From the NCBI GenBank assembly GCA_903845055.1, contig CAIMWF010000025.1, positions 1-44,554 on the forward strand: a stretch of DNA of 44,554 bases, read 5' to 3'. A model generated the notes under the pieces. That model had not been told where the DNA came from and searched no databases. It saw only the letters and a list, made by a program, of their open reading frames with translations. The translations under genes and the position numbers were made by a program. Below are positions 9,485 through 42,578 of this stretch, one piece after another. This DNA comes from an uncultured Bacteroidales bacterium (GTDB lineage: Bacteria; Bacteroidota; Bacteroidia; Bacteroidales; FEN-979). The first letter of the stretch is position 1; the number at the start of each line of letters is the position of its first letter.

Positions 9485-11871
9485 TCGTATTTTAACGCAT
9501 TCGCAGGATTTTCACGTAAAACCCGGAGTGTTTTGAGAAACAGGATCAAAGAAACAAAAATTCCTACAAATATGACCGATAACAGGAAAATGTACCAGTG
9601 GATGTCGATGTGGTAGTAAAACCGGTCGAGCCAGAAAGGCAGCAGGTACCATGCCAGTGGTATGGCAAAAACGGCAGCAATCAGGATATAGAGGATGAAT
9701 TCTTTCTGGATGAGGTAGATGATGCTGAAGGATGAGGCGCCAAAGACCTTCCTGACCGACATTTCTTTCAGTCTCCGTTCAACGATCAGCATGGCCAGGC
9801 CAAACAATCCCATCCCGGTAATGATGAATGCCAGCAGGGAAAAGGAGGCCACAATCCTCGCAAAATTCTCTTCACCGACATACATTGCTTTCAACTCGCT
9901 GTCGAAAAAGTTGTAAGCGATGGGCGCCTCCGGCGAGCCGCTTTTCATCTTACGGCTGATCAACGCCTGAAGCTGATGCTCGTTTCCGGCTTTGTACCGG
10001 ATGATCATGGTATTGCATTCCGATGGCCGGAGGGCGTACAGAGTGGGACCTATCTTTTTGTGCAGGGTATGGATGTTAAAATTGCCTGCAACTCCGACAG
10101 TGGTAAGGGTGTATATTATATTGTGTGAAGCGCCGTTGTAATTTATCACACGGGCAGCCTCCTCGTTGATGATCACCGGGTTGTCTTTGAGAGAATCCTG
10201 GTGGCCGAAATCATGACCTGAAACCATGCGCGCCCCAAGGGTGGTAAAAAAGTTATAATCGACGGAAATGCTCTCGAATTTGATTTTTTTATTGTTCAGG
10301 GACGGAACCCCGATGTTTACCGTTTTTGCGCTGGCGGTGGGAATCTGTATTGAAGATCCTGTACAGGAGCTTACATAGTCAAGTTTTTCAATATCATTTT
10401 TGAACATGCGGTAACTCCTGTTGTCGTCCTGGTTAAAGCTGACCACAAGGAGATGCTGCCGTTCGATGCCCTGGTCCCGGGTCAGGCAAAACCGGATCTG
10501 AAGATATACATTGATCAGCCCGATGAAAAGGACAAGCGTGATGAATATCTGGGTTACGATGAAGATCTTGCTCAGGCTCACCTTTTTATAAATGATGAAG
10601 TTGGATCTGAGCGCAGTTACCGGGTTGAGGGCTGAAAGATACAGCGCGACATATACGCCCGACAACAGCCCGATGACGACCGAAACGGCCGAAGAGACAG
10701 AAAGGTAAAGCAGGAGGTTGCCTGCATTGAGGTGCAGCTGGTAACCGTAATACTCTTCCAAAACCGGGTCGATCAACCCGATGAGAAGGTACGACAGCGG
10801 AAAGGCGAAGAGGGTGAGCAGTACCGACTCCGACAGGATCTGGCCAATGAGGTTGCCCCTGGAGGCTCCCAGCACCTTGCGCACGCCGATCTCCTTGAAC
10901 CTCAGTGCCGCCCGGGCCGTGCTCAGCATCGAATAGTTGATCGAAGCCAGGAGGAGGATAAAAAAGGAGAGCGACAGGTAAATATAAAGGTTGCGGCTGC
11001 TTCCCCTGGCAATGAAATCATTCTGTATGTTCTCCGAATGAAGGTATATATCCCTCATATTCTGAAAACTGACACTCCCGGGGTCGAGGTTGGTCCTTGA
11101 CAGGAAAGCAGGGATCCGGGCTTTGATCCTGTCGATCCGGGCCTCCTTTTTCAGCATGATAAAGGTCTGGGCGGTATAATCACCAGGTTTGTTCAGTTCT
11201 TCTTCAGGGTCAGGGTACACCTGGCGGAGCACCTCCTTGTAAAACCCGATCCCGGTAATAAAGTCGGCCTGGATCGTTGAATTCCAAGGCAGCCCGGCAT
11301 ATACTGCCGAAACAACCAGGGGATAAACAACCCCGTTTATGGAGACATGCAGAGTTTTGCCGATCGGGTTCCCGAAGCGGAACATTTTCCGGGCGGCACG
11401 GTCCGAGAGAATGACCTGGCCGGGGTCTTCCAGGAGATGCTTTGTTGAACCCCGGTAAAAATTCATCCCGAGCATTCCGGTAAGTTCAGGATCGGCACAC
11501 AAAAAATCAGGGACCTCCTGGCTGACATCCCCGCTTTTTACCGAAACAGTTCCCATCATAAAATTCAGGTGAATGATCCTCGCAGAAGTTTCAATTTCGC
11601 TGAAACTTCCCGACAGGCTCGGCTTAAGGATAAAGGGACCGAAGCCACCCTTTTCACCGCTTTTATAGGTGTTGATGACCCGGTAAATGCGGCCGCTGTT
11701 TTTGAAGCACCTGTTGTAGCTGAGTTCATTGACGGCAAAGATGAGGAGGATAAACGACACGGTCAGGCCCAGGACAAGCCCCGCAAGATTGATGGAGGTG
11801 TAACCCTTTGTCCGGGAAAGGATGCGCAGCGAAATCTTAAGATTATGTGCAAGCTTTGGGAACCACCTCAT
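9481..11871 (-). CDS. FtsX/MacB-type ABC permease, duplicated form
   Basis: A 796-aa permease of the large Bacteroidota type: two copies of MacB_PCD plus FtsX. The first membrane segment (INLAGLVLGLTVSFILL) is followed by a periplasmic domain. Then come FtsX helices with the conserved coupling sequence FKEIGVRKVLGASRG, a second half starting near residue 445, and a closing repeat of the coupling motif MSVRKVFGASSFS before the last two helices. I chose the ATG at 11871 (MRWFPKLAHNLKI) rather than 11886 because it forms an ATGA overlap with the pseudo-radical-SAM stop. The partner ATPase is probably at 6600-7271. In peptide loci these pairs act as extruders or immunity transporters; that role is inferred here. 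Confidence 0.87.
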   Translation of the reverse strand: MRWFPKLAHNLKISLRILSRTKGYTSINLAGLVLGLTVSFILLIFAVNELSYNRCFKNSGRIYRVINTYKSGEKGGFGPFILKPSLSGSFSEIETSARIIHLNFMMGTVSVKSGDVSQEVPDFLCADPELTGMLGMNFYRGSTKHLLEDPGQVILSDRAARKMFRFGNPIGKTLHVSINGVVYPLVVSAVYAGLPWNSTIQADFITGIGFYKEVLRQVYPDPEEELNKPGDYTAQTFIMLKKEARIDRIKARIPAFLSRTNLDPGSVSFQNMRDIYLHSENIQNDFIARGSSRNLYIYLSLSFFILLLASINYSMLSTARAALRFKEIGVRKVLGASRGNLIGQILSESVLLTLFAFPLSYLLIGLIDPVLEEYYGYQLHLNAGNLLLYLSVSSAVSVVIGLLSGVYVALYLSALNPVTALRSNFIIYKKVSLSKIFIVTQIFITLVLFIGLINVYLQIRFCLTRDQGIERQHLLVVSFNQDDNRSYRMFKNDIEKLDYVSSCTGSSIQIPTASAKTVNIGVPSLNNKKIKFESISVDYNFFTTLGARMVSGHDFGHQDSLKDNPVIINEEAARVINYNGASHNIIYTLTTVGVAGNFNIHTLHKKIGPTLYALRPSECNTMIIRYKAGNEHQLQALISRKMKSGSPEAPIAYNFFDSELKAMYVGEENFARIVASFSLLAFIITGMGLFGLAMLIVERRLKEMSVRKVFGASSFSIIYLIQKEFILYILIAAVFAIPLAWYLLPFWLDRFYYHIDIHWYIFLLSVIFVGIFVSLILFLKTLRVLRENPANALKYE

Positions 11872-13091
11872 GGGCAAACATGGCAAAAATTAAATTTCTT
11901 CGAACTGATTTCGTAATTGCTGATCGGGGGGCAAAGAAATTGGTAGAGGCAATTCTTACAGGGTTCAACCCCAAGGCGCCTTCTTTTCCAGCTGGTTCCC
12001 CCTTCAACCTCCTTGGCGACCAGTTCAGCGACCGACTCGCGGTGAATATTCCCCAGCGGGGCGTCGTTTACATTCGCAAAAACGGCACCGTCGGGAAATA
12101 TTGTCAGCTTCCCGTAATCGTTCTCGTTCATCGTCATACGCGAAAACACCTGGTTCCGGGTAGGCCGTGATGCTTTGATATCGGCTTCTCCGATAAAGAC
12201 CTGTTCCCTGAAAAAACCGGTGTTGTGCCCGTCCAGGTGAGGTTTGAAGTAGACATGTTTCGTGTTAAGCCCGGAAATCATCCCGATGCTTTCTTCAACT
12301 TCCGCGTTCGACCTGACCACGAAATTAAACTCCAACCCCTTTTGCTTCCCGTATTTTTTAACAAGTGCAGTCATCTGGTCCATTTCCTGCTGGCCGGCAG
12401 GAAAGGTCACATAGATGCAAAGCGATTCGTTTCTTTTCAGTTTTCCCGGAAGGGCAGGGGGCAGCAGGCTGAGCGGCATGTGGAACTTTCGGCGGAAAGG
12501 GGTATCAGCCATCATTTTACCGATTGAATCATACCACGGTGAGTCAAGGATGCCCGGCCCGGTAAAGTTGAAGGTGGCAAAAGGCAGGGTTGTCGTCTGG
12601 CGGATCACCGACATGATGGTTTCCAAGGAGAATTCTTCCCCCGGCCCGGCTGAATAAAGCGGGAAGGGGAACTGGGTGTATGCCCGGTCAAATGCAGCCA
12701 TCCCGGGCCAATTGGTGGCGCTTACATGGAACGTTATTTCACGCAGGTGGTTTTCCAGTGCGAATTTGTCCTGTTTGACGATGGGCTGGGGCACGATGTT
12801 GAATGGTTTCGTCAATGACAATCCAGGGCTTTGTATACCTGCCATGAAATCATTCTGGAGTCCGGCAATGAACTCTTCCACGCCATTTTTCTTCAACTCC
12901 TCCCAGCCGATCTTCGTTACATAACCATTTGCAGGGTCGATCAACTGCCTGGTAATCTCCGCAATCCGGAAATTTCCATGACAGGCAATGTATTTCCTAT
13001 TTACGGTGTTGTAATACAACACGTCATTATTCACGCATGCCACCTGCACATACGGCTCAAGGATGATCCACTGGAAATTATCAGTTTGCAT
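11868..13091 (-). CDS. Pseudo-radical-SAM partner protein, GG-Bacteroidales system (TIGR04150-like)
   Basis: A 407-aa protein between the maturase and the permease, with overlaps at both ends (11 bases and ATGA). It resembles the radical-SAM/SPASM peptide enzymes in overall layout, including a C-terminal region starting LTIFPDGAVFANVNDAPLGNI, which mirrors the 'lt.dG.v.pC....lGNi' region of SPASM proteins. There is no CxxxCxxC motif anywhere, so it cannot bind the SAM-activating cluster in the usual way. It does keep a terminal cysteine set, C378, C381, C387, C403 and C406, which could bind an auxiliary cluster. The family is known only as a companion of the GG-Bacteroidales maturase. A role in recognising the precursor or forming a heterodimer with the active enzyme is inference. 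Confidence 0.82.
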   Translation of the reverse strand: MQTDNFQWIILEPYVQVACVNNDVLYYNTVNRKYIACHGNFRIAEITRQLIDPANGYVTKIGWEELKKNGVEEFIAGLQNDFMAGIQSPGLSLTKPFNIVPQPIVKQDKFALENHLREITFHVSATNWPGMAAFDRAYTQFPFPLYSAGPGEEFSLETIMSVIRQTTTLPFATFNFTGPGILDSPWYDSIGKMMADTPFRRKFHMPLSLLPPALPGKLKRNESLCIYVTFPAGQQEMDQMTALVKKYGKQKGLEFNFVVRSNAEVEESIGMISGLNTKHVYFKPHLDGHNTGFFREQVFIGEADIKASRPTRNQVFSRMTMNENDYGKLTIFPDGAVFANVNDAPLGNIHRESVAELVAKEVEGGTSWKRRRLGVEPCKNCLYQFLCPPISNYEISSKKFNFCHVCP

Positions 13092-14592
13092 GAAAGGCTT
13101 CCTTTAGTAATTTACTGTATAACGTGTAATCATTTTCGACCAGGTTGAACATCTTCTCCAGGAGTTCCCTGAAATGCTGTTCGTCCATGAAAAAATCGCA
13201 TACGGGGTTTTCCAGGTCTGTCCTGGTGTTGAAGACACACTCCTTACAGTTGTCGGCAAGATAACACCGTTCGCAGAGTGACCTGATCTTGTCGAAATTC
13301 CGGTTGAACAGGTCGGCAATCGACCGGGAGTCAAGATGTACCTCCCGGTTGTGAAGATTTCCCAGTTTAAAGTCCCTGCTGATATGCTCACAAGGTAAAA
13401 CAGATCCGTCTGCCGTGAGGTAAACCCGCAGGGAGAAAGGCAGGCAGGTAGCGGTTGGGACAAATGCCCTTGACACCTCATTGCCATTGATGCGGCTCAT
13501 GATCTGGAAATGGTTCTTGAAGATGATGCCTGTGTACTTTTCGAGGGTGTTTGCGAGCTCCTTCACGGTGGGGTGTTCCATGAAAAGCCCGAGCATGTCC
13601 TTTTTATGATGGAATGTATTGCGCATCCCCGACAGGAAGGTCGTGGAAAATTCCTTTTTGTGCACCTCGTTGATGTTCGTCGTACTGATCATCGAGGTGA
13701 GCGGGGTTTTCCCGAACCTTTTTTTGAAATAATCCACCACCTCCTGGTAACTGTTCCTGTTATGCAGGACCGCGAGGAAGGAGATGTTGCGTTCAAAATA
13801 ATCGGGGTAGCGCTCCCGTAGCAGGTCCAGGTGCCTGAGGACGATTGCATGGGTGGGCAATTCCCCCTTGAGAATCCTGAAGGAGTTGCCTGTTTCGTCC
13901 CCGTCGAGACTGACCGAAACGTCAAAATCGTTGGCAACGAGGTAATCCGTATGTTTTGACAGCAGTAACCCGTTGGTCGTCAGGTTGAATTTAAAGGTCT
14001 GCCGGTCACCATAAGATTCTTTCAGGTAGGCGACAACATCCCTGATAAAGGCAAAGTTCCGGAAGGGTTCGCCGCCATAAAAACTGACGATCAGGTGGGT
14101 TGAAGCCTTGTCCCGCACGCTCATCAGGTGATCGAGGGCGCGCTTTGCGGCAGCAATGCTGAACTTTTTCTTTCCCCGCTCCTGGTTGATGTAAAATTTG
14201 CTGTAGGTGCAATAGGTGCATGAAAGATTGCACTCCTCGGTTGTTTCAAATATTACCTGCTGAACCCTGGTCAGGTCGGTTTCCACGCGCGAGGGTTGAA
14301 GCCTGCCATTCAGGTTGACCTGCCGGGGTACTTTGAAAAAATCATGTTGCTTGAGAAAGCGGTATTTTTTCCAGTGCACCACCAGTTCAGCATGGCTTAC
14401 CTGGAAATTTTCAAAAATGACGGGGTTGCCGTCATTTTTTGAAGTTTGTATAAATTCAGAAAGGTTTATTCCGGATACTTCCAGGTCATGCAGGCGGGAA
14501 ATCACCGGGTGACATAACAGAACCTGGTTGCGAAAGGGACTGTAAAGAAAGGAATGACCGTTTAACGTGTTGAAAAAAACTGCTTGTTTCAT
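13081..14592 (-). CDS. Radical-SAM/SPASM peptide maturase, GG-Bacteroidales family
   Basis: A 503-aa enzyme. The N-terminal part (about 1-105) resembles a precursor-recognition region. The radical-SAM core starts at about residue 112 with ETTEECNLSCTYC, giving the cluster ligands C121, C125 and C128. Next come YGGEPF (the GGE motif) and LTTNGLLL, and then a SPASM-type C-terminus with many Cys (VLPCEHI...LGNLHNRE...LCERCYLADNCKECVF...NPVCDFF). Enzymes of this type use S-adenosylmethionine to modify a ribosomal peptide, often making thioether or other crosslinks. The substrate should be the precursor encoded 72 bases upstream. The gene overlaps the pseudo-radical-SAM gene by 11 bases. A stable hairpin ends 3 bases before its ATG and may throttle its translation. 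Confidence 0.92.
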   Translation of the reverse strand: MKQAVFFNTLNGHSFLYSPFRNQVLLCHPVISRLHDLEVSGINLSEFIQTSKNDGNPVIFENFQVSHAELVVHWKKYRFLKQHDFFKVPRQVNLNGRLQPSRVETDLTRVQQVIFETTEECNLSCTYCTYSKFYINQERGKKKFSIAAAKRALDHLMSVRDKASTHLIVSFYGGEPFRNFAFIRDVVAYLKESYGDRQTFKFNLTTNGLLLSKHTDYLVANDFDVSVSLDGDETGNSFRILKGELPTHAIVLRHLDLLRERYPDYFERNISFLAVLHNRNSYQEVVDYFKKRFGKTPLTSMISTTNINEVHKKEFSTTFLSGMRNTFHHKKDMLGLFMEHPTVKELANTLEKYTGIIFKNHFQIMSRINGNEVSRAFVPTATCLPFSLRVYLTADGSVLPCEHISRDFKLGNLHNREVHLDSRSIADLFNRNFDKIRSLCERCYLADNCKECVFNTRTDLENPVCDFFMDEQHFRELLEKMFNLVENDYTLYSKLLKEAFHAN

Positions 14593-14664: not shown

Positions 14665-14877
14665 TTAAAGCGATGTCTTCGTCTGTCCGGCTGCACTGGC
14701 TGCGGCGGTATTGTCGCACACGCACATGTCGCCGATCGAACCGCCTGATTGTTTGGTGGATATCATCGGGTTGTTCATGGAGCAGTAACATTTCACATCA
14801 ACACCTCCCTTGATCTGGGCTAACTTGTTCTTTTCAAGTTCGACTTTGTGAAGGTTGATCAGGCTTAATTTTTTCAT
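14665..14877 (-). CDS. RiPP precursor peptide with GG leader, GG-Bacteroidales family (TIGR04149-like)
   Basis: A 70-aa peptide. The leader starts MKKLSLINLHKVEL and ends LAQIKGG, so C39 cleavage would follow residue 25. The predicted 45-residue core begins VDVKCYCSMNNP and contains two CxC pairs (core positions 5 and 7, 27 and 29: CYC and CVC), an internal SGGS and an Ala/Thr/Ser-rich tail. Leader start and GG end match the natural-product precursor family that accompanies the maturase and pseudo-radical-SAM proteins encoded next. The peptide would be modified in the cytoplasm, cut and exported by the C39 transporter. Its activity is unknown: bacteriocin, signal and metal binder are all possible. 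It is the first gene after a sigma-54 promoter. The core has no relative I can name. Confidence 0.9.
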   Translation of the reverse strand: MKKLSLINLHKVELEKNKLAQIKGGVDVKCYCSMNNPMISTKQSGGSIGDMCVCDNTAAASAAGQTKTSL

Positions 14878-15286: not shown

Positions 15287-17362
15287 TTACAATTTTTCTA
15301 CGTAAAAAGGCAGTGAAAAATCACCGATAACAAGGGTGCCGTCCGATACCAGGACGATGGTGCCCCCTTTATAAGCGCCGCCCAGGTATTCAAGTCCCCT
15401 GAGCTCCCGCATGGAATAGCCCGGGTCGGTGGTCACTACCGGGAGCAATTTAAGCAGGTCGTCACGGAGTGAGAAGATATTGTTGCTTGCAAGCGATGTT
15501 TTTATTTTAGCCGCAGCCGCACCGGTATATTCAACTTTGGAAAGGGCTGCCGCTGGTGACGTTGAATTTGGCGCAGTATCGGACTTCTTCTTTGCGGTGC
15601 GGAGTTTAGCAGCATCAGCGAACATGCGTCCATAGGCATTGATGTCGTTCATGATGCTTTTCAGGGAACCAATGTCACGGTAAGAGGTTTCATTGATGGT
15701 TGTGCGCATATCCTTGAATTTTCTCATGAAACCCTCAAGCTGGGTTTGCTGCGCCTGGTCTTCGGGAAACCTTGTGGCGATGAGGTCCTTGTAAAAGGCT
15801 TCATATTTCCCGATAAATTCAAAATACTTATCCCGGAAACCCGACCATTGCTGGTTTTCAACCTCCACCAGGATGGCCTGCAATGGGATGTCAAGATTTG
15901 CGATCATCGACTTCAATGCCTGCAGCGCTTCGGCTGGTTTGAGACCGATATGCCCTTCAACCCTGTAAAATGGATATTCCGTCAGGTTGAATCTGAAGGG
16001 ATTGGAAAACCGTTCGCGGCTTGCCTGGTGGCTGTCAAAGTAGTTGAAGGCCTGGTCGGCAAGGGTGTCGAGATCCTGCACCCTCCAGTATGAGTTGAAT
16101 ATTTCACTGCCGCCGTTCAACACTTCATAATAACATGGAACCGACCGGTCACCCAGCCTGAAGGCGTATCCTTTGTCGGGTATTAATTTCAGCCTTGCCG
16201 CTGCCGAGGTGCCGTTCTGCTTCACAAAAACATCCACTAGTTTTGCAGTTTCCGTAAAATGATTAACCAGCACGCTGATTCGCCGGCACAGGTTTGCCAT
16301 GATGAGGAAGCCCGCCCTCCGGTCACGCGAACTCAGCGGAGATGTCCAGAGATAGCGGAATGCATCTGTTGGTGTTTCCGGGAATTGTCCCAGGACCAGC
16401 ATGCGGTTGAACCGTGGGCCCCCTTCGGTGTTATAGTATTTATAGATAAAGTTGTTGTACTGTGTGATGAATTCGTTCATGGACAGCTGAAGGTCGTTCG
16501 CGAAAAGCAGGTAGTGCTCCCGGTATACCGGCTGTGCATCAAGATTGCTGATGATGACTTTTAACCTGGCAATCCCCTTTTTCAGCACGGTCACTTCGTC
16601 GGGAAGCAAGGTGGCTGCGGTAACGGTAATTTCGGTCATCTTTTCAGCCGCCTGCGCCAGGTTGTTTTTTGCAAGCGTAGTCACCCGGGTCACAAATTCC
16701 GCCTTGCCGGAAAGCTGGGATATGCCGCTGAGCCCGCCGAGCATCATTGACCCGATGTTATTGTAATATTGGTTGATGCGTGCAAACTGCGGACTATTGG
16801 CCAGGACGGCGATGGTATTGATACAATCTTCCTCCCCCCGGGTATTGCAAGTCCCCGGTGAACAATTTCCGAGTCTTGTCACTTTAATGTCGGCAAACAG
16901 AAGGAGTTTGTATTTTGACAGGAGGTCCTGTTCGGTAATGTCGATCAGGCGGGAAGCATCCTTAATTTCTGCTGTTTTCAGGTCGGCATCGGAGAGCAGG
17001 CGCAGGCAGGCAATGGTTTTATCTTCGGTAGCCTGCGGATCCAAAACCTTTGCAGGCATAGCCCAGTTCATGATGTACCTGAAATTCACAGTCTTGTCGG
17101 CTGGTAACGCTCCGGGCAGGCAGATGAAATAGCCATCCTTTGATGACCCGTACCCTGGTTTGATATCAACCGTTTTAATTTTGCCTCCTGCCGCAGTATA
17201 GCTGTAATCCAAGCCATCAATGATTCCCTGTCCGATAATCATACTACGGGTGACACGTTCGTGACATTCGAGAAAACTGAATGATTCATTGAGGTTATCG
17301 CTTGTGAGGAACTGGTCGGGAAGATATACCGGGTACTGGTTTTTAATATCTTTCATTTCCAT
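15287..17362 (-). CDS. eCIS-associated large protein of unknown role
   Basis: A 691-aa protein, last in the eCIS operon. I chose ATG 17362 (MEMKDIKNQYPVYL), 22 bases after the previous stop, because a longer frame from 17422 would overlap the Lys-rich end of the upstream gene by 38 bases. The first 60 residues carry a 'PDQfLTSDnLNe.f.fle...R.TR..i.G.GIidGL' pattern that I associate with large proteins near Bacteroidota eCIS baseplates. The middle is helical, with several coiled-coil-like stretches, and the end is short and beta-rich (GGTIVLVSDGTLVIGDFSLPF). No signal peptide and no enzymatic motif are seen. It may be a baseplate-attached or fibre-like component. A role as cargo cannot be excluded. 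Confidence 0.75.
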   Translation of the reverse strand: MEMKDIKNQYPVYLPDQFLTSDNLNESFSFLECHERVTRSMIIGQGIIDGLDYSYTAAGGKIKTVDIKPGYGSSKDGYFICLPGALPADKTVNFRYIMNWAMPAKVLDPQATEDKTIACLRLLSDADLKTAEIKDASRLIDITEQDLLSKYKLLLFADIKVTRLGNCSPGTCNTRGEEDCINTIAVLANSPQFARINQYYNNIGSMMLGGLSGISQLSGKAEFVTRVTTLAKNNLAQAAEKMTEITVTAATLLPDEVTVLKKGIARLKVIISNLDAQPVYREHYLLFANDLQLSMNEFITQYNNFIYKYYNTEGGPRFNRMLVLGQFPETPTDAFRYLWTSPLSSRDRRAGFLIMANLCRRISVLVNHFTETAKLVDVFVKQNGTSAAARLKLIPDKGYAFRLGDRSVPCYYEVLNGGSEIFNSYWRVQDLDTLADQAFNYFDSHQASRERFSNPFRFNLTEYPFYRVEGHIGLKPAEALQALKSMIANLDIPLQAILVEVENQQWSGFRDKYFEFIGKYEAFYKDLIATRFPEDQAQQTQLEGFMRKFKDMRTTINETSYRDIGSLKSIMNDINAYGRMFADAAKLRTAKKKSDTAPNSTSPAAALSKVEYTGAAAAKIKTSLASNNIFSLRDDLLKLLPVVTTDPGYSMRELRGLEYLGGAYKGGTIVLVSDGTLVIGDFSLPFYVEKL

Positions 17363-17384
17363 ATTGACATGGTTTAAGCGGTTT

Positions 17385-20027
17385 TTACTTTTTATTTCCC
17401 TTCTTGTTTGTTTTCCTGACATTTATTTTTACGGCCGGTAAGGCATTTGCAGCGGTTTCCCGAACCGGAACATTTTTACCCTCAGTGCATGGCTGGAATA
17501 TAAAATCTTCACTACCTGCCAGCGTACTGTTATCCAGGATCACCGGGCTCCCTTTCAGGTTTCCTGAAGCGTCAAATTCCATCGAGTCGCACGAATCGAG
17601 TTGTGAAGGAGGATAAATGTTTTTTAATACGGAGAGTATGCCGATGAGGTCGCCCAGGGTTTTGATGTATTTGTCTTTGAACGGCTTTGCAGGTTTTACT
17701 GCCAGTTTATAGGCGCGCAGTGCCGACAAGTAGGCGCTGTAGGCCTGTTCAAAAAGGTACATTTGCTTTGGCCCGACCCAGCAGATTTTGACCCCGGCAT
17801 GAGCGGGTGCCTCCATCCTGAATTGTTGCTCGATATATTTTCTGAAGTCCATCCGGCCGCTGATACCGAGCCATCCGGGCACCAGGACGGTGAGCCGCAT
17901 GGAATAGGTATCGTAAAAGATACAGTCGTTCAACGGGTCGGGCAGGATTCCGTTGCTGCACATCTGCAGCAATGATTGTTTTGGATCGGTTTCGAGGGGG
18001 CGCAGCAGGATATGCTCCACGATGTGGAAGCCGAAGGTTTTTTCAAACGGTTCAAGACGGTTATCGCAAAAGTTGTATATATCTTGACCCGTAATGACAA
18101 TATTCCCCTGGCTGTCGGTAACAGGGATGGCAAGTTGTTTTTGAGGGTTCTCAATTCCCAGGATCCTGGAGATGCGTTTCTCAATGACGGCGGTATTATC
18201 CGGCGACGGTGGTTCCAGGTAATTGACAGCATGGGAACGGTCGGAGCTGAGTTGCGGGTAGTCTTTCAGGAATGCAATTTTCCCGTTGATCTTTTCCTCG
18301 TCCGATAAAATGTCGTATGAAATCCCGCTGCCGGCCTGGGAAAACTTAAAAATGCTGAAGTCGGCGAACCGTTCGCTGAAACGGCCCAGGAGATGATCAA
18401 GGAAACGGTTTCGGCGGTCCGACCGGGTTTCGGCAGTTTCCACGATATCCTGGTATGGGTCGTAAGAACCGAATATTTTTTGAAAATCGTTTATTTCACG
18501 GTCCGACAATGCTTTATAAACATAAGTCGGGGCAGAACTGCTGTCTCTCCATGAAAGCAGGTCTTTGACCGAATTCAACTGGGCCAGGTAGTCGGCCAGC
18601 AACTGGTCGAAAAAGAGCAGGAAGCCCTTTAACTGAAGCCTCTGCGCCTTCCTGCGGGGGGTGGCGCTGTCGGGAACACCCTCCCTGCCTGTCATGTATG
18701 CCTTTGGAAAATCATCCTGAACGGAGTAATAGTCAGAAACCGACCTGTTGGTGCCATCAGGATAGGGAAGATCGTCGGTAAAACCAGTTATTTTTCCCGG
18801 GATGGGAACCAGGGAAGACAAGGGTGGCGGGGTCACAAAATGGGCCGGGAAATAGATAGCCCCCTTGTGAAATGTGATTTTGTTCAGTTTCTTTTTGGGA
18901 ACCAGATTATAGTCGAGCATGAACCGGAAACTGGCATTCGCCGGGTCGGTAAGTTTAAGACTGTATTTCTCTCCGACTTTCAGCAGTGTGTAATCGCCGG
19001 TTTTGGCATCAAGCCGGTAACTGTCGAAATGGATCTCCCTGATGGCCCTCACCCCGTCAATATCCATCAGCAGGTTGATGACATCCGAGACGTAGATCAC
19101 CTCGCGGTGGTTGTACTGTGCCAGTTCATCCAGGTCAATGAAACCCCGTATGGCGGCGGGCCCCTCGAACACCTGATCGGCAGTTTTACCCTTTTCCAGC
19201 AGTTCTTCAATGGTGTAATCCGGAACAGGTGGACTTATATAATGGTACACCGCCCTGATAACGGAGGCGTAAACTTCTTCGGGTCTGGCCTGCGGCGTGA
19301 GTTCGATATCGGCGCATAATGCCACGGTTTCCCCGGCAACCACAACCACATCATGAAAATCTTCGCACAGGTTCCGCTTCTCAAGTAGTTTTTTCCTGAC
19401 ATGCATCCTGTAGGCATCGTTGATCTGGGTCACGGAGTAATTGCCATTGGCCCCGTTGGGAAGCCCTTTGACAATGGAAGCAAGGAATGGTTTGAAATTC
19501 CTGGTATTCAGCAGTTCGGTCTCTTCCAGTTCGATCCTCGCGTTGTAGAGGCCCCTTAGCCTGAGTTTCGCCGCACCGAAATAGGGTGACTTGAATGAAA
19601 GCTGGCTCTTTTTTTCATCAATGTACACGGCGGGACTGTAATCCTGGTCGTCAAGGAGGTCAAACCAGATATTCCTGACGCCGGGCACAGCATCGATGAT
19701 GTATTTCCTGTAATCTTCCACTGTCACCGGGTGCGAGGTAAGGATCTCCTTCGCGGTATAAAAGGCCGAATCTTTTGCAGGAGCCCCGTCTCCGTCCCGT
19801 GTGAGCAGGTCGGCGACCGGGAAGGAGGTCCGGTAGCCAAGGTCGGTCAGCGCATAGCATAGCAATTCGAGGATGGTGATCCCGGGGTCGTGGATGTTGT
19901 AGTCGGTCCACAGGTTGCTGCCCAGTTGTGTGATCTGGTCAATAGCCGCAGCACGCAGGAACAGGTAATCTTCGGCATTTGGCCTTTGGGGCGATGTATC
20001 GATCAGGTATTTATCTTCGGATGACAT
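17385..20027 (-). CDS. eCIS baseplate protein, Pvc12/gp7-like
   Basis: An 880-aa protein starting one base after the baseplate J stop. Its N-terminus contains the characteristic LWTDYNIHDPGITILELLCYALTDLGYR region (about residues 38-65; only part of it is quoted in motif form in the family), shared by baseplate proteins of Bacteroidota contractile systems. The rest is a long mixed alpha/beta protein ending in a Lys-rich tail (KINVRKTNKKGNKK). In PVC and Afp systems Pvc11 and Pvc12 form the baseplate wedges around the spike, so this one and its upstream neighbour should be the wedge pair. Placement after gp25 and J, and tight coupling, support this. The fine function is inferred from family and position. 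Confidence 0.8.
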   Translation of the reverse strand: MSSEDKYLIDTSPQRPNAEDYLFLRAAAIDQITQLGSNLWTDYNIHDPGITILELLCYALTDLGYRTSFPVADLLTRDGDGAPAKDSAFYTAKEILTSHPVTVEDYRKYIIDAVPGVRNIWFDLLDDQDYSPAVYIDEKKSQLSFKSPYFGAAKLRLRGLYNARIELEETELLNTRNFKPFLASIVKGLPNGANGNYSVTQINDAYRMHVRKKLLEKRNLCEDFHDVVVVAGETVALCADIELTPQARPEEVYASVIRAVYHYISPPVPDYTIEELLEKGKTADQVFEGPAAIRGFIDLDELAQYNHREVIYVSDVINLLMDIDGVRAIREIHFDSYRLDAKTGDYTLLKVGEKYSLKLTDPANASFRFMLDYNLVPKKKLNKITFHKGAIYFPAHFVTPPPLSSLVPIPGKITGFTDDLPYPDGTNRSVSDYYSVQDDFPKAYMTGREGVPDSATPRRKAQRLQLKGFLLFFDQLLADYLAQLNSVKDLLSWRDSSSAPTYVYKALSDREINDFQKIFGSYDPYQDIVETAETRSDRRNRFLDHLLGRFSERFADFSIFKFSQAGSGISYDILSDEEKINGKIAFLKDYPQLSSDRSHAVNYLEPPSPDNTAVIEKRISRILGIENPQKQLAIPVTDSQGNIVITGQDIYNFCDNRLEPFEKTFGFHIVEHILLRPLETDPKQSLLQMCSNGILPDPLNDCIFYDTYSMRLTVLVPGWLGISGRMDFRKYIEQQFRMEAPAHAGVKICWVGPKQMYLFEQAYSAYLSALRAYKLAVKPAKPFKDKYIKTLGDLIGILSVLKNIYPPSQLDSCDSMEFDASGNLKGSPVILDNSTLAGSEDFIFQPCTEGKNVPVRETAANALPAVKINVRKTNKKGNKK

Positions 20028-23128: not shown

Positions 23129-23560
23129 TCATGAATTAACATTATGCTGGGGTAAAGTCATCGTTCCCTCCTGGAGAAAGAACGGGTAGACCATGTTGTG
23201 CCTTGAGTTTGTCGCCCTTATGCGGTAGGTGACGCCAATCATGATCAGGCCCTCCTGGTCTGTGGTGCTTAATGTCACATCTTCGGGGTTTACACGGGGC
23301 TCATAATAATATATCGCCGTGAAAACGAGGTCCCTGATATAGGTCTGCAATGAGATCGTCAGGGGCTCGAACAACATTTCGCTGAGGTTGCATCCGTAGC
23401 CGGGTTGCATCAGGCGCTCGCCGATGCGGGTCGCCAGCAGCACCTGGAGACTGTTCTGAATGTCCTCCTCATCGGAAATCATCCTGGCACCCCCGGCGGC
23501 TTTTGAAAATTCCGGCGGAAAACTCCAGCCGGTTCCCAGAAACGATTCAAAATTATCCAT
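23129..23560 (-). CDS. eCIS baseplate protein gp25 (GPW/gp25 family)
   Basis: A 143-aa protein with the gp25/lysozyme-like wedge fold signature: GTGWSFPPEF at the N-terminus, the acidic helix DEEDIQNSLQVLLATRIGERLM, then PGYGCNLSEMLFEPL and YYEPRVNPEDVTL. The EPR motif is the conserved core of the family (Pvc9, TssE, T4 gp25) and helps start sheath polymerisation on the baseplate. This is one of the few genes here with a clear Shine-Dalgarno, GGAGGA seven bases before the ATG. That sequence is itself the last two codons of the decayed PAAR gene upstream. Confidence 0.92.
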   Translation of the reverse strand: MDNFESFLGTGWSFPPEFSKAAGGARMISDEEDIQNSLQVLLATRIGERLMQPGYGCNLSEMLFEPLTISLQTYIRDLVFTAIYYYEPRVNPEDVTLSTTDQEGLIMIGVTYRIRATNSRHNMVYPFFLQEGTMTLPQHNVNS

Positions 23561-23564
23561 GTTA

Positions 23565-23627
23565 TTATCCTCCGATCATTACTGTTGGGCAACCCGCTGC
23601 GATTCATACCCTTGCTGCTGGTGGCAA
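23565..23627 (-). pseudogene. Remnant of a PAAR spike-tip gene, internally deleted
   Basis: In the 77-base gap between VgrG and gp25 one minus-strand frame reads LPPAARV, stop (TGA at 23606-23604), IAAGCPTVMIGG, stop (23567-23565). PPAARV is the usual N-terminus of short PAAR proteins, and 'I-A-AGCPTVxIGG-stop' is their usual C-terminus, so about 80 or more central codons appear to be lost while both ends stay in one frame. The expected ATG is replaced by TTG. VgrG-PAAR-gp25 is the normal order in such loci, so position agrees. PAAR proteins cap the VgrG needle and can anchor toxins. An assembly artefact is possible and should be excluded. Confidence 0.72.
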
Positions 23628-23637
23628 AGCCTGTTTG

Positions 23638-25392
23638 TTAATTGATCATTACCATGCTTCCTTTTACGGTTGTTGTTCCCGAAGCCGATATCTCGGCCGA
23701 AGCCGAACCCTCCGCTTTCATTGCCGCGTTAGCCTTCAGTGAAATATTCACACCTTCAATACTGACGTCCCCGCTGGCTTTGATCGTGATGTCCTGTGCG
23801 CTCTCCATGCTGATCCCGGTTCCCGACATCACCACCTGGTTTGAATTTTGGTCAGTGAGCGTGATCTGTTTATCCTGTTCGCTGAAAACCATTTTATTTC
23901 CGGCCGGTGTTTCAATGGCAATGATTTTGTTTTCGTCGTCAAACTCCAGTTTCATATGCGAGCGGGTGTAAAAACCCTTGATGTTGTTTGTGTCGGCAGC
24001 CGTTACCGGCGCAGGCAGGCTGCTGCTGTTGAGCATCCCGAGCACGATGGCTTTCCTGGGATCATCATCCAGGAACCCTACGATCACTTCATCGTTGATT
24101 TCAGGACGGAAAAAACTGCCCCTCTGGTTCCCGGCATCAAGGGTTGCCACCCGGGCCCAGCATGTATTCTCTCCATCGGCTATTTGAGGCAGTTTTATTG
24201 AAATCCGGTCGTCACCCACGGGATCATTTTCCAGTGCGACCACAATGGCAACCTGGAGCCCGTGAACCGGTGGCAGCGCCCCTGAAGCGGCCCTCGCCCC
24301 GACATCATCAAACTGGTTTGCAAAGGCGACGGGCGACAGACCGAATTGCAGATCGGTTTCCCAGGTGCCTCCCGCGATTGACTGGCTCACGCCGCTTACG
24401 AATGCCTGGCCGTTAAACCGGTTACCAACGCCGTACAGGGTGATCAGGTCACCAGGATTAACGGCTGCAGTGCCGGTACATTTTACTCTTCCCCTGATCT
24501 TCGCGAGGTTGTTTCTCAATATCAGTGCTTTGGTGAACTCATCCGCCTCCTGTTCCGGTACCGGTGCATTGATGAAGAGGTGGAAAGTTCCTGTCCCGAG
24601 GGCCGTTGCAAGATCGGAAACGGAAAGATTCCCTTCAGCGGAAGCGACAGAAGATCCGGGTTCATCTGAGACAGTAATTTCCTGGTTGGCCTCATTCCAG
24701 GTCGTGGCGGAATAATTGTTGAAAGAATTCCTGGCATCGATCTCTCCTTCGAATTCAAGGATGGATGAACCGTAATAAAGCGAAAGTACACTCCCCGCAT
24801 TGAGCGAAGGAGCTTTGACCGTGATTGTGTCGTAACCGGGAATGACGGTCTTGCCATTTGACTCGGCCCGCATGTTGATAAAATCCCAGTCGGTTGCATT
24901 GTACTGGACCAGGCTCTCCTGCTGAACATTCGTCGCCTCCACATCCGAAGTGATGTTCCCGCTGTTCAGGATCTCCTCAATGGCTTCAGAGTCCTTCATG
25001 TTGCTGAACACCTTGTTTTTGTGGGTCAGGGTAAGGATAAAGGCCGCATGCTTGGCCACAATATTCAGCGTTGATGCCTGTTCCTGCAGGATTTTTATGG
25101 CATGTTTCACGATAATCCCCTTAAAAATCGTCTCATTGATCCCGTGGTAACCGGCCCTGATCTCGATTGCTTTACCGGGGATGAGAACATCCGCGTTGCT
25201 GACCTCGAAATCCTCGGTAGCTACATCGCCGTCAAGCAGCGTAATCTCGGCCTGGGGAATCCTCGACAATTCCCGGGTAATGAGAACGGAAAGCAGGCGG
25301 TATGCAGGGTTAAGTTCCACTCCTTCTACAAGGATGGTGTAGGAGGGGAGATCACTCGGGGCGGAAGTTGGCACCAGCCGGCTGTCGGGCAT
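23638..25392 (-). CDS. eCIS spike protein, VgrG/Pvc8-like
   Basis: A 584-aa protein with the typical gp27-gp5 fusion layout. Residues about 1-350 form the hub (YTILVEGVELNPAYRLLSVLITRELSRIPQ region and PLYYG-like GSVLSLYYGSSILEFEGEI). Residues about 375-460 form the gp5 OB-fold (VAIVVALENDPVGDDRISIKLP, then CWARVATLDAGNQRGSFFRPEINDEVIVGFLDDDPRKAIVLGML). The C-terminus is a beta-helix of alternating short strands (ITLTDQNSNQVVMSGTGI, DITIKASGDVSIEGVNISLKA) ending MVMIN. A trimer would form the needle that punctures the target membrane. Length is that of eCIS VgrG proteins. No C-terminal effector is attached. The following PAAR gene is a remnant. Confidence 0.95.
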   Translation of the reverse strand: MPDSRLVPTSAPSDLPSYTILVEGVELNPAYRLLSVLITRELSRIPQAEITLLDGDVATEDFEVSNADVLIPGKAIEIRAGYHGINETIFKGIIVKHAIKILQEQASTLNIVAKHAAFILTLTHKNKVFSNMKDSEAIEEILNSGNITSDVEATNVQQESLVQYNATDWDFINMRAESNGKTVIPGYDTITVKAPSLNAGSVLSLYYGSSILEFEGEIDARNSFNNYSATTWNEANQEITVSDEPGSSVASAEGNLSVSDLATALGTGTFHLFINAPVPEQEADEFTKALILRNNLAKIRGRVKCTGTAAVNPGDLITLYGVGNRFNGQAFVSGVSQSIAGGTWETDLQFGLSPVAFANQFDDVGARAASGALPPVHGLQVAIVVALENDPVGDDRISIKLPQIADGENTCWARVATLDAGNQRGSFFRPEINDEVIVGFLDDDPRKAIVLGMLNSSSLPAPVTAADTNNIKGFYTRSHMKLEFDDENKIIAIETPAGNKMVFSEQDKQITLTDQNSNQVVMSGTGISMESAQDITIKASGDVSIEGVNISLKANAAMKAEGSASAEISASGTTTVKGSMVMIN

Positions 25393-25395: not shown

Positions 25396-26094
25396 CTAGG
25401 AATTTAATTTTTTTAACGGAGGGAAAAAGACCACGGTTCCGGCTTTCACCTCCCTGAAATTGTTCATCCCGTTCTTCCGGGCAACATCCAGGTAGTAATC
25501 ATTGCTGCGGTAAATTCCGAAAGCCATTGAAACGAGCCGGTCGCCGTCTTTGGCAACCCTCTTATGCGTAAGGTCGGGAGAATTCTTGTTGTTGATCAGT
25601 TCGCTGAGCTCCTGGTCGATGCAACTGGTGAAGACGCAATTTACCTTTGCACGCAGGGGATTCCCGTTGGGAGTGAACAGGTTGTAGGTGATGTCGATGG
25701 TTTTCAGCACACACTTGAGCAGCACCGAGCCGAACCTGATCATGACATAATTGGGCTTGTGTTCGTCCGACTTATAGGTGTATACTACATTGAGCAGTTG
25801 CTGTACCTCGTCGGGAACCACCTTTTTCACGCCGTTTACAGGTTTCACGCCATCTATGACAAACTCAAACACATAATCCTGCGGCTTGATCATCTTAAAC
25901 CGCATTTCACTGGAGGTGGAACCGGGGGGCTGACTCTCCTCCCGGTCGACCCGGAGCTTGACTGCGAGCGAGGCGGGGTTGAACATGGTCTCATACACAC
26001 CGGCATCGGGGTCCTTCTCCGTGAAATTATTGTTCCTGTACGCAGTGAGGGTCATCTTGGTCAGGTGGCCCGTTTCAGAGGTTGTACCAGGCAT
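25396..26094 (-). CDS. eCIS tube-associated protein with LysM-like C-terminus (Pvc7-like)
   Basis: A 232-aa protein. The first 180 residues match the contractile-injection-system tube-protein N-terminal family: the FTEKDPDAGVYETMFNPASL start, then SSEMRFKMIKPQDYVFEFVIDG and PNYVMIRFGSVLLKCVLKTIDITYNLFTPNGNPLRAKV. The end (RVAKDGDRLVSMAFGIYRSNDYYLDVARKNGMNNFREVKAGTVVFFPP) resembles the LysM-like fold of gp53/Pvc7-type hub or wedge proteins. It should link spike and inner tube. Its ATG overlaps the stop of the 51-aa gene by one base, and it stops 3 bases before VgrG, showing tight coupling. Confidence 0.88.
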   Translation of the reverse strand: MPGTTSETGHLTKMTLTAYRNNNFTEKDPDAGVYETMFNPASLAVKLRVDREESQPPGSTSSEMRFKMIKPQDYVFEFVIDGVKPVNGVKKVVPDEVQQLLNVVYTYKSDEHKPNYVMIRFGSVLLKCVLKTIDITYNLFTPNGNPLRAKVNCVFTSCIDQELSELINNKNSPDLTHKRVAKDGDRLVSMAFGIYRSNDYYLDVARKNGMNNFREVKAGTVVFFPPLKKLNS

Positions 26095-26253: not shown

Positions 26254-26715
26254 TCAAATTGTCAGTTCACGAAAATGGTCATAGGCCAGCTCCATGGTTT
26301 CAATAACCAGGGAGTTGTTATTTGCGTTAAATTCAGACACCAGGAGTTTTACCGGGTAGACATTGCTGAAATTCCAGCTTTTAACCGGCGTATGGAGTTC
26401 ATTGAGCAGGGTGACAAGCACGTTGCATGGCTGGATGTCCAGGTTGTTGATGGCTCGCCAGGCCCAGTCGGAGAGGGTCGAAGCGATCGGGAATAGTCCC
26501 CGTTTCAGGACAAGGTTTGGATGCCTTGCCCTGCCCGGGAGCTTGTGAACAAACCGGTTTTCACCTCCCTCCTCCAGTTCTTCGACGGCAAGCTCGGCCG
26601 ATAGCCCTGATACCTCGGCAAACTGTGAGTCAATGGCCGGCAACATACCCGGCAAACCACTGAAGGTCACGGAAAAATGAAATGCGGGCAGGGGATATTG
26701 TATCGTCTCTGTCAT
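26254..26715 (-). CDS. eCIS inner tube protein, second copy (Pvc5-like)
   Basis: A 153-aa gp19-family tube protein: YPLPAFHFSVTFSG, then AEVSGLSAELAVEELEEGG, LPGRARHPNLVLKRGLFP and LLNELHTPVKSWNFSNVYPVKL. The pattern of 'F.v...g....fsEVsGL' and 'PnltLkRG' is diagnostic of Hcp-like CIS tube subunits. It is more divergent than the first copy and lies closer to the hub genes, so it probably forms the tube-initiator ring on the spike, as Pvc5/Afp5 do. It is located 30 bases after the first tube gene. Confidence 0.9.
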   Translation of the reverse strand: MTETIQYPLPAFHFSVTFSGLPGMLPAIDSQFAEVSGLSAELAVEELEEGGENRFVHKLPGRARHPNLVLKRGLFPIASTLSDWAWRAINNLDIQPCNVLVTLLNELHTPVKSWNFSNVYPVKLLVSEFNANNNSLVIETMELAYDHFRELTI

Positions 26716-30012: not shown

Positions 30013-30591
30013 CTACATTTTGTTAATCAGATCAATGCCGATCCCGGTCACCTCCCGCACCTGGTCAAGCATCCTGTCATCCTGGATGAGCAGCAGCCGA
30101 ACCTTGTACATGACCGAGGGGACCGGACTGTGTCCTGCCGATATCCAAAAAAGATTTTCCTGTTCAATAGTCTGGGTGTGAAGTTCAACCATCAGCGATT
30201 CCAGGACCGAGGCCTCTCCCGTGAGATCAGCCTGGCCGAATGTATTTTTCCCCTGGAGGATCGACATGATAAAGGAGACCTGCCTGAGGGCTTCCGTGTA
30301 TGCAGCGGCGTCGAACAGCGCCGAAAACAGGATGTAAAGGTTGATCTTGATCTCTGGATTGATGACGGTATAAAAATCGCTGGCGGGGTCGGCCTTCCGG
30401 TAATAATTCTGGTTCTTAAGGATGTTTTCCTCTTCGATGTGAATCAGGGTCAGGTGGATCTTGTTGTCAGCGGTGGTCTCTTTTCCAAGCGGCCCGGTTT
30501 TTACACTTTCGGTGGCCGGTGACAGTCCAAGTTTTTGGTTGAGTTCATTGTTAAGGAACTGACACAGGAAACCTAATGCAAGATGGATCAT
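30013..30591 (-). CDS. eCIS DUF4255 protein, sheath/tube terminator (Pvc16-like)
   Basis: A 192-aa protein with the DUF4255 pattern: FLCQFLNNELNQ at the start, IHLTLIHIEEENILKN, the core NLYILFSALFDAAAYTEALRQVSFIMSILQGKN, the LMVELHTQTIEQENLFWISAG region and PSVMYKVRLLLI near the end. In PVC and Afp this protein caps the distal end of sheath and tube. It is the first gene of the minus-strand operon, starting 86 bases from the divergent tape-measure gene. It has the usual length. Confidence 0.92.
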   Translation of the reverse strand: MIHLALGFLCQFLNNELNQKLGLSPATESVKTGPLGKETTADNKIHLTLIHIEEENILKNQNYYRKADPASDFYTVINPEIKINLYILFSALFDAAAYTEALRQVSFIMSILQGKNTFGQADLTGEASVLESLMVELHTQTIEQENLFWISAGHSPVPSVMYKVRLLLIQDDRMLDQVREVTGIGIDLINKM

Positions 30592-30676: not shown

Positions 30677-32131
30677 ATGAACCGCAAGGTACATATCAAC
30701 AAACTTATCCTGGATATAAGGTATCCATTGGTTTCCGATGGTCAAGAAGCCCTTGCAATGGCGCGTAAAGGGTTTGAAAATTTGATTTTGCCTGAGCTTG
30801 ATAAAATTACAGATCATTTACCTGACCGCGATATCAGGATCGGTCAGATAAATCTCGACCTTGGGGTGATCCGTGAGACAGAACTGGCCGAAAAACTGGC
30901 ATTGAAGATGGATGATGCATTCAAAAGTGCTGCAAATTCAGAGATGACAAACGGTCAGGATTATCTTTCCGGTGAAAAAAGGGCGATTGGTGACCGGGAG
31001 GAGGTGGGAATGCTTATTTCATACCTGGTCCTGGGTTATTACAGCATGCCGTTCGGGAAAGCAGGGGAATCCCTGCCTGAAGAATGGCTGAGCCGGGTCC
31101 TTTGGGGAGATGACCAGGAACTCATCAGGTTGATTTATGAACTGCTGGGGGGTACCCAGCTTTCGTTATGGAACCGCGAACAGGCACTTTCAAGATTGCT
31201 GCAGCTGGTCGCTCCGGGAGACAGGTTGAAATTCCTCGAAAGATTCAGCGACCTGTTGTCCGGCCCTTTGCAAGAAAAGACACGCAAGATCGTCCGGCAG
31301 CTGGAAGCGCTGAACCCCGGGCATTTTCTGCTGGTGGAAATAACCGATACCTTAAGTCACCTGGTCCTTCTGCATCGTAGCGGCGACGATACGGCTGAAG
31401 TCAACAATGCAGTCGACCGTTTCTGGGACCTGGCAAGATACAACGATACCCAAAAGGAACAGGTTCGCCGGGAAGGGGAGGGTGATCCCGGTCGCGCAGC
31501 GCCGGCGAATGGGATGCTGCCTGGTTTTTACGGGGAAAGACTGGTGCCCCTGTTCCCGGAAAGGCCGGGGGGCGTTCATGATGAACATAAGGAGGAACCT
31601 GCCCCTGATATTTTTGACATTCAGGAGCGGACCTTCATCATGAATACCGGGCTCGTTCTTCTTGTACCGTTTTTGCACCGTTTTTTTGAAAATGCCGGTC
31701 TCACGCACGAGGATGAATTTGTTTCCGGCCGCCACAGGATGCGGGCGGCATTCCTGCTGCACCGCATCGCGGAGCCTTCAGGGGCGTTTCATGAAGATGT
31801 CCTGCTGTTGAATAAACTGTTATGCGGCATCCCGGCGTCTGCAAGCGTCGACATTCACCAGAAACTGCTGCACCGCGAACGCCAGGAAATTGCCGATCTG
31901 CTCGGATCGGTCATTGCACATTGGAAAGCGCTTAAGAATACGACCAGCGCGGGTTTCCGCGACGCCTTTCTCCGGCGGAAGGGAACAATCGAAAAAAGTG
32001 GTGCCGATTACCTGGTAAGGGTTGAAACCCTGCCGCACGACATCCTGATGTCGTCCCTCCCATGGAGCATCGGCATGACCAGGTTCCCGTGGAACGATTA
32101 CACGGTCCATGCCGAATGGAATCTGCCATGA
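30677..32131 (+). CDS. eCIS tape-measure protein (CIS_TMP family)
   Basis: A 484-aa protein divergent from the main operon. The N-terminus shows the family start (HINKLILDIRYP, then FENLILPELDKI and IRIGQINLDLGVI). The C-terminal half holds the diagnostic region from about residue 322: MNTGLVLLVPFLHRFFENAG, then RMRAAFLLHRIAEPSGAFHEDVLLLNKLLCGIP, ending with WSIGMTRFPWNDYTVHAEW. In eCIS this family sets the length of the tube (Pvc14 role). At 484 residues it is at the short end, which would fit a short particle. The linker at about 270-315 is Gly/Pro/Glu-rich and probably disordered. Confidence 0.88.
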   Translation: MNRKVHINKLILDIRYPLVSDGQEALAMARKGFENLILPELDKITDHLPDRDIRIGQINLDLGVIRETELAEKLALKMDDAFKSAANSEMTNGQDYLSGEKRAIGDREEVGMLISYLVLGYYSMPFGKAGESLPEEWLSRVLWGDDQELIRLIYELLGGTQLSLWNREQALSRLLQLVAPGDRLKFLERFSDLLSGPLQEKTRKIVRQLEALNPGHFLLVEITDTLSHLVLLHRSGDDTAEVNNAVDRFWDLARYNDTQKEQVRREGEGDPGRAAPANGMLPGFYGERLVPLFPERPGGVHDEHKEEPAPDIFDIQERTFIMNTGLVLLVPFLHRFFENAGLTHEDEFVSGRHRMRAAFLLHRIAEPSGAFHEDVLLLNKLLCGIPASASVDIHQKLLHRERQEIADLLGSVIAHWKALKNTTSAGFRDAFLRRKGTIEKSGADYLVRVETLPHDILMSSLPWSIGMTRFPWNDYTVHAEWNLP

Positions 32132-32264
32132 AAATAAATTATCCTGAAGAGGCTCCTTTCATCCTTTGATTTTTCCTTTATCTTTACCATACGGTTCACT
32201 GCTGTTTTCAGTCCATGTAACTGGTGATCCGCGGGAATTCCATATCTGAAATCAAATCCGAATC

Positions 32265-39242: not shown

Positions 39243-39260
39243 TTTCCTCTATTCCCAAAA

Positions 39261-41678: not shown

Positions 41679-41710
41679 CTTTAATTGTTTGCAGTTGGTT
41701 TTTTTTTATT

Positions 41711-41746: not shown

Positions 41747-41888
41747 ACTCTTTTTTCAATCACTACCTGATTTTGTTAGGTTGGTAGTTGTGCGATGATA
41801 AAGAGGTTACCAATACCGTACCAAAGGAAATGAATTCTGTAAACAATTGATAATCAATATAAATATATTTGGCACACGGACTGAATTA

Positions 41889-42577: not shown

Positions 42578-42578
42578 G

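What the first reader, a model, noticed from the sequence alone, without database searches (positions are those of the whole stretch)
23560..23640. PAAR tip gene reduced to its two ends between VgrG and gp25
The gap encodes, in one frame, LPPAARV, a TGA stop, and IAAGCPTVMIGG with a stop. These are the typical first and last residues of short PAAR proteins, and the place is where a PAAR gene normally stands in such operons. The middle seems deleted, the start is TTG, and the last codons GGA GGA now serve as ribosome binding site for gp25. The eCIS particle would then lack its own spike tip, or borrow one encoded elsewhere. Alternatively an assembly error removed the middle.
Basis: partly seen in the sequence, partly recalled or inferred. 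Interest (0 to 1): 0.8.

Follow-up and report, generated by a model that had tools for sequence, protein, structure and literature searches.

The report
eCIS spike-tip gene reduced to relic
In a draft genome related to Bacteroidales, the gene for the sharp tip of a phage-tail-like injection particle has been cut down to its two ends, while the genes that build the particle are still open and a second injection machine in the same genome keeps a whole tip gene.

Summary
On the minus strand between vgrG and gp25, one frame reads LPPAARV-stop-IAAGCPTVMIGG-stop: the start and end of a short PAAR gene with the middle gone. PAAR stood here ancestrally: it lies beside vgrG in 78 of 79 evaluable named loci and 87 of 96 whole genomes with this VgrG. 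The closest relative, G014 (VgrG 71% identical), lacks the gene; G019, of the same family, lost it separately. The particle-building genes examined are open. By analogy with PVC mutants the particle would be tipless and unloaded. The VgrG tail that docks a tip is unchanged, and G000, G014 and G019 each hold one intact PAAR, on a contig with a T6SS TssC, 80-84% identical to its best eCIS match. I favour recent disarming (0.6); a tip borrowed from the T6SS is the bold alternative (0.25). Assembly error cannot be excluded without reads.

The parts
23607..23627 (-). 5' remnant of PAAR gene (LPPAARV, TTG start)
23604..23606 (-). TGA at the deletion junction
23565..23603 (-). 3' remnant of PAAR gene (IAAGCPTVMIGG, TAA); GGAGGA just upstream of gp25
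23638..25392 (-). VgrG-like spike (Afp8/Pvc8 type); tail VKGSMVMIN as in PAAR-bearing relatives
23129..23560 (-). gp25 baseplate wedge
   Evidence: Pfam PF04965
20029..23097 (-). Baseplate J-like (Afp11 type)
   Evidence: Pfam PF04865
17385..20027 (-). putative baseplate protein; only a weak TIGR02243 match, far under its cut-off
   Evidence: 66% identical in G014
15287..17422 (-). last open gene of the operon, unknown, kept in G014 (61%) and G286 (31%)
25396..26094 (-). CIS_tube / LysM-type tube initiator (Afp7 type)
   Evidence: Pfam PF19266
26094..26249 (-). small ORF MPVEINELVI..., in the place of the DUF5908 (plug-like) genes of relatives
   Evidence: relatives L021 and L022 hit PF19265; the window ORF itself was not scanned
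26254..26715 (-). tube protein gp19
   Evidence: Pfam PF06841
26746..27180 (-). tube protein gp19
   Evidence: Pfam PF06841
27215..29236 (-). sheath
   Evidence: Pfam PF17482
29264..30010 (-). unknown operon gene kept in G014 (57%)
30013..30591 (-). Pvc16 / tail terminator
   Evidence: Pfam PF14065
30677..32131 (+). tape measure protein
   Evidence: Pfam PF19268
32116..32169 (+). 5' stub of the eCIS AAA ATPase gene (MESAMKINYPEEAPFIL-stop), overlapping the tape-measure stop as in G014

Best explanation
A real, recent deletion removed the middle (some 230 bases) of the PAAR spike-tip gene of this eCIS operon, leaving its first 7 and last 12 codons in one frame around a stop. A second deletion cut the AAA ATPase gene at the other end of the cluster after about 15 codons. 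What is left is the set of genes that builds the particle: sheath, tubes, tube initiator, spike, wedge, baseplate J, terminator, tape measure. By analogy with PVC, where particles without Pvc10 assemble but are inactive and Pvc15 is needed to load payload, the particle should have no tip of its own and no payload loader. The locus is thus disarmed, either on its way to loss or kept for a use that needs no injection. Shown: both lesions, the ancestral PAAR, openness of the other genes. Inferred: recency, particle assembly, loss of delivery.
For: Remnant anatomy. PAAR beside vgrG in 78 of 79 evaluable named loci and 87 of 96 whole genomes. VgrG tree: window and G014 sisters (SH-aLRT 99), joined by G286 (94) and then PAAR-bearing L028 (99). 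The G014 ATPase has one match in G000, 29% identical over its residues 241-442 in a 675-aa frame, E 9.7e-14, whereas G014, G019 and G286 give matches of E 1e-105 or better; stub after the tape measure. The other operon ORFs are open; against G014 dN is 0.08-0.33 over 11 genes, with dS 1.68 and 1.73 for the two tube genes and not computable (returned -1, taken as saturated) for nine. The 18 remnant codons still read as PAAR although synonymous sites are near saturation between window and G014, so the loss should postdate that split (inference). One relative-rate test shows an excess of changes in the window lineage (269:210, p 0.008, outgroup G286, 8 genes). Published: PVCs without Pvc10 form intact, loaded but inactive particles, and pvc15 is needed for payload loading (PMC10097599, passages; PMC13368577, passages).
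Against: The excess of window-lineage changes vanishes with outgroup G019 (231:237, p 0.82, 10 genes), and T6SS genes taken as control are more lopsided (313:190, 8 genes, of which a poorly conserved VgrG gives 139:66); so relaxed constraint is not shown. In an E. coli T6SS the PAAR protein is needed for baseplate and sheath assembly (PMC10715212, abstract), unlike Pvc10, so assembly without a tip is not certain. I saw no passage on whether PVCs assemble without Pvc15. The genome is a 95% complete draft of 175 contigs, so an ATPase could sit in missing sequence. No reads were available. Disarming does not explain why G014 and, separately, G019 lost the tip while keeping the ATPase.
Confidence: 0.6

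Rival explanations
1. The particle still injects: the spike is tipped in trans by the PAAR protein encoded in the T6SS locus of the same genome (C116). Own-tip loss is tolerated because one tip serves two machines.
For: G000, G014 and G019 each have one PF05488 gene over cut-off, in another locus. That of G000 lies with TssC, two TssD, TssB, TssG and ClpV-like genes; in G014 and G019 a PF17541 TssC lies on the same contig a few kilobases away. These PAARs are 83% (G000), 84% (G014) and 80% (G019) identical to their best eCIS match. The VgrG tails of the three eCISs keep the motif G..[VI].[IL]N, found in 130 of 132 VgrGs scored as PAAR-bearing. Among 96 genomes a PAAR lies elsewhere in 5 of 9 PAAR-less and 3 of 87 PAAR-bearing ones (Fisher p 1e-4, not corrected for kinship); in 5 of 6 with the tail kept and 0 of 3 with it changed (p 0.048). 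Purified Pvc10 loads onto tipless PVCs and restores activity (PMC13368577, passages); T6SS and eCIS PAARs intermix in phylogeny (PMC8651086, passages).
Against: Correlation only, with few independent events (G000/G014 are sisters, G494/G588 one genus), and the tail classes were set after seeing the tails. G494 and G588 have no TssC, so their PAARs are not T6SS ones. G518 keeps the tail but has no PF05488 match at E 1e-5. G019's own T6SS VgrG is one of the two exceptions to the tail motif. The missing ATPase in G000 would still bar payload loading of the PVC kind. The T6SS VgrG of G000 is only 35% identical to the eCIS VgrG, over its C-terminal part. No binding data.
Confidence: 0.25
2. Assembly or binning error removed some 230 bases here (and the ATPase), and the real genome has both genes.
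For: Draft assembly of 175 contigs; no reads to check.
Against: No second copy of the region in the assembly, no repeated 15-mer of 23500-23700 in the window; two separate lesions would be needed; PAAR is also absent at this place in the separate assemblies of G014 and G019.
Confidence: 0.08
3. A tipless contractile particle with a non-injecting, perhaps intracellular, role, as proposed for Streptomyces SLPs that lack a PAAR gene; loss of tip and loader is adaptive.
For: Both lost genes serve delivery in PVC; the particle genes stay open. Precedent: PMC10286715 (passages).
Against: SLPs also lack the tape measure, which is present here; the VgrG docking tail is unchanged; no positive evidence of another role.
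Confidence: 0.07

Closest known systems
Photorhabdus virulence cassette without Pvc10 (engineered deletion; PMC10097599, PMC13368577, passages)
   Same: Contractile particle genes with the PAAR-type tip gene removed and the spike protein kept.
   Different: Here the deletion is natural and the ATPase is also lost; function unknown.
Streptomyces lividans SLP cluster lacking PAAR (PMC10286715, passages)
   Same: No PAAR gene in the cluster and no C-terminal extension of the VgrG-like protein.
   Different: SLP lacks a tape measure; here there are a relic, a tape measure, and a T6SS PAAR in the same genome.
AlgoCIS of Algoriphagus machipongonensis (PMC8894135, passages)
   Same: eCIS with the same kinds of parts: tube initiators with a LysM-type one, plug, VgrG-type spike, J-type baseplate.
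   Different: AlgoCIS has its PAAR-like Alg10.
eCIS of uncultured Bacteroidales bacterium Kiruna2_bin-1621 (G014, L027)
   Same: Sister cluster, no PAAR between vgrG and gp25, T6SS-linked PAAR elsewhere.
   Different: No clear relic left; ATPase intact.

Membership tests
eCIS (extracellular contractile injection system) | Tube, sheath, spike, wedge, baseplate J and Pvc16-type genes clustered | tested here: met
eCIS (extracellular contractile injection system) | PAAR_motif gene (core domain in PMC8213781, passages) | tested here: not met
   only a relic in the cluster:
eCIS (extracellular contractile injection system) | AAA ATPase (core domain in PMC8213781, passages) | tested here: not met
   stub only; no orthologue found in the 95% complete genome:
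PAAR protein (PF05488) | Intact domain (Pfam model 70 positions) | tested here: not met
   19 codons around a stop; the PF05488 search of the genome does not hit the site:
PAAR gene relic | Both gene ends in one frame at the place where relatives hold PAAR | tested here: met
Tipless SLP-type cytoplasmic CIS | No PAAR and no tape measure in the cluster | tested here: not met
   tape measure present
Tipless SLP-type cytoplasmic CIS | Particles found inside the cell | not testable with these tools
   none
Spike without PAAR docking end (as in G286) | Altered VgrG tail in place of the docking end | tested here: not met
   window tail VKGSMVMIN matches PAAR-bearing relatives

The most novel reading that the evidence does not exclude
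Two different injection machines share one tip: in this family of Bacteroidales, eCIS clusters have repeatedly shed their own PAAR gene because the PAAR protein of a co-resident T6SS docks on the eCIS spike.
Probability: 0.25. Interest if true: 0.75.

Novelty: new variant of a known kind. Interest (0 to 1): 0.5.

Why it matters
PAAR is listed as a core eCIS domain. Here it is caught soon after loss, in a host family where two eCIS lineages lost it and where a T6SS-linked locus carries a very similar tip. That makes a concrete test possible of whether contractile machines exchange tips in nature, and hints at which parts of an eCIS go first when delivery is given up.

Tried and rejected
Chance peptide: rejected. 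A gap that never held PAAR: rejected. Intact copy of this PAAR elsewhere in the assembly: only the T6SS-linked one; the weak C23 match (E 0.97) does not read as a PAAR. Read-through of the stop: pointless, since some 75 codons are missing. Relaxed selection in the window lineage: mixed result, not shown. Close relatives in viral contigs: none among 4 pattern matches. Literature: six searches (4, 6, 0, 0, 7 and 22 papers, of the last 12 listed). Ten papers were opened: nine by passages, PMC10715212 by abstract and outline; the rest were seen as listings. None of what I saw reports an eCIS tipped by a T6SS PAAR; the library holds open-licence papers only.

Rows dropped or weak: L038 (contig ends inside vgrG) and G077/L129 (VgrG 32%, no gp25 or PAAR found in the flank, not followed up) were left out of counts. 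L027 and G014 are the same record and appear in both the 79 and the 96. G215 was counted as PAAR-bearing although its PAAR lies 1.4 kb away behind an inserted ORF. Adjacency was read from coordinates by eye, and the counts for the Fisher tests were typed by hand. PF05488 thresholds differ (E 1e-6, 1e-5). Second PF05488 rows of G639 and G784 lie at the same place in a frame with stops and were not counted; G604, G717, G633 and G682 have two PAARs, each beside one of two vgrGs. One search tested 80 of the 96 genomes (16 of one family left out by the handle limit). The 132 reference VgrGs include T6SS and other loci. The per-position residue counts are poorly anchored and not used. The dS of nine genes could not be computed.

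Full report
Observation. The gap between vgrG (ORF end 23638) and gp25 (ATG 23560), minus strand, reads in one frame LPPAARV, TGA, IAAGCPTVMIGG, TAA. These are the two ends of a short PAAR protein. In 20,000 single-base shuffles of the 77-base gap neither motif appeared.

Setting. The window is contig C25 of a 3.95 Mb draft genome, G000, 95% complete. The operon from 30591 down to 15287 holds Pvc16, an unknown gene, sheath, two tube proteins, a small plug-like ORF, the LysM-type tube initiator, VgrG, the relic, gp25, baseplate J and two further large genes; the tape measure lies on the other strand. The nearest relative, G014, is in the same genus and appears to be the same record as L027, uncultured Bacteroidales bacterium Kiruna2_bin-1621 (same contig number and length).

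Ancestry. A scan of named genomes gave 80 loci; a PAAR ORF sits next to vgrG in 78 of the 79 evaluable ones, the exception being L027. Searches over relatives, order and phylum gave 96 genomes with this VgrG that were tested with PF05488 (one more, G077, was dropped): 87 have PAAR beside vgrG (one of them 1.4 kb away behind an insert), 9 do not: G000, G014, G019, G286, G494, G518, G552, G588, G789. In the VgrG tree window and G014 are sisters (SH-aLRT 99), then G286 (94), then PAAR-bearing L028 (99); G019 falls in a group of ten (100) whose nine other members, mostly Mucilaginibacter, have PAAR. So the gene was lost at least twice in this host family, and more often if the readable relic dates the window's loss after its split from G014, as I infer. 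In G019 the gap begins ATGCC and ends GGAGG before gp25, like the two ends of PAAR genes in its Mucilaginibacter relatives, so it too may be a minimal relic; this is short and only suggestive.

Second lesion. In G014 the tape-measure stop overlaps the start of an AAA ATPase gene (PF00004). The window keeps this start (32116-32169, MESAMKINYPEEAPFIL-stop) and then diverges. No orthologue was found in G000; its one match is a 29% AAA-domain match in a 675-aa frame. G014, G019 and G286 have one.

What the rest shows. The other operon genes are open. Against G014 dN is 0.08-0.33 in 11 genes; dS is 1.68 and 1.73 in the two tube genes and not computable in nine, taken as saturated. Relative-rate tests are mixed: window-unique to G014-unique residues 269:210 (p 0.008) with outgroup G286, 231:237 (p 0.82) with outgroup G019, and 313:190 for T6SS genes as control. 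Relaxed constraint is therefore not shown.

A tip elsewhere. The only PF05488 gene over cut-off in G000 is at C116:33501-33791, beside a VgrG in a locus with TssC, two TssD, TssB, TssG, gp25 and a ClpV-like ATPase (TssF matches only under its cut-off): a Bacteroidota-type T6SS (the subtype name T6SS-iii is recalled). G014 and G019 likewise have one PAAR each, with a TssC on the same contig. In the family, 7 of 43 genomes have a PAAR: these three, G013 (in its eCIS), and G002, G022, G027, which have no eCIS of this kind at E 1e-30 and whose neighbours look T6SS-like on reading only. TssC occurs in 4 of 9 PAAR-less and 8 of 71 PAAR-bearing eCIS genomes tested (p 0.025). A PAAR lies elsewhere in 5 of 9 against 3 of 87 (p 1e-4). 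None of these tests is corrected for kinship. In G494 and G588 the other PAAR is about 23 and 46 kb away on the same contig, and these genomes have no TssC.

The docking end. PAAR-less genomes fall in two sets: six keep the VgrG tail of PAAR-bearing relatives, three have another ending (G286 ...TYTPGAGNVW, G552, G789). A PAAR elsewhere goes with the kept tail in 5 of 6 (G518 is the exception) and with the changed tail in 0 of 3 (p 0.048). The sets were defined after seeing the tails.

Mechanism. Published PVC work (passages) says that particles without Pvc10 assemble, load payload and are inactive, that added Pvc10 restores them, and that Pvc15 is needed to load payload. Against the analogy, a T6SS needs its PAAR to assemble (PMC10715212, abstract). 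On the PVC analogy the window's particle should assemble but be tipless and unloaded unless helped. I put most weight on disarming in progress; the shared-tip reading is open for G000 and more attractive for G014 and G019, which keep the ATPase. PMC8651086 (passages) already argued from phylogeny that some PAAR subtypes can serve both machines; I found no report of a natural cluster that may depend on this (searches).

Verdict. New variant of a known kind.

Noticed in passing
window 14665-14877 (-), 13081-14592 (-), 11868-13091 (-), 7283-9484 (-): A RiPP-like cluster beside the eCIS: small GG-motif peptide MKKLSLINLHKVELEKNKLAQIKGG..., radical SAM maturase TIGR04148 and pseudo-rSAM TIGR04150 (both over cut-off), and an ABC transporter that resembles peptide exporters but matches those models under their cut-offs.
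   Followed up: partly
window 36609-43100 (-): A run of genes that reads like a chaperone-usher pilus set (877-aa usher-like, 276-aa chaperone-like, several small secreted proteins; recalled resemblance); no NCBIfam match for the first two.
   Followed up: no
L107/L179 (G286), vgrG to gp25: PAAR-less eCIS whose VgrG ends ...SVIGATYTPGAGNVW instead of the usual docking tail, with no PF05488 match at E 1e-6 in the genome: possibly a self-tipped spike.
   Followed up: partly
L184 7179-7724 and L185 7053-7619 (G494, G588): In two genomes of one genus the only PAAR (182-189-aa frame, with a C-terminal extension) stands about 23 and 46 kb from a PAAR-less eCIS, beside genes that read like a ThiF-type enzyme and a small ubiquitin-like protein (reading only).
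   Followed up: partly
G442, G455, G673, G717, G736, G744, G789: Genomes with a TssC but no PF05488 match at E 1e-5 other than those beside eCIS vgrG (none at all in G789): either another tip family or tip sharing in the reverse direction.
   Followed up: no
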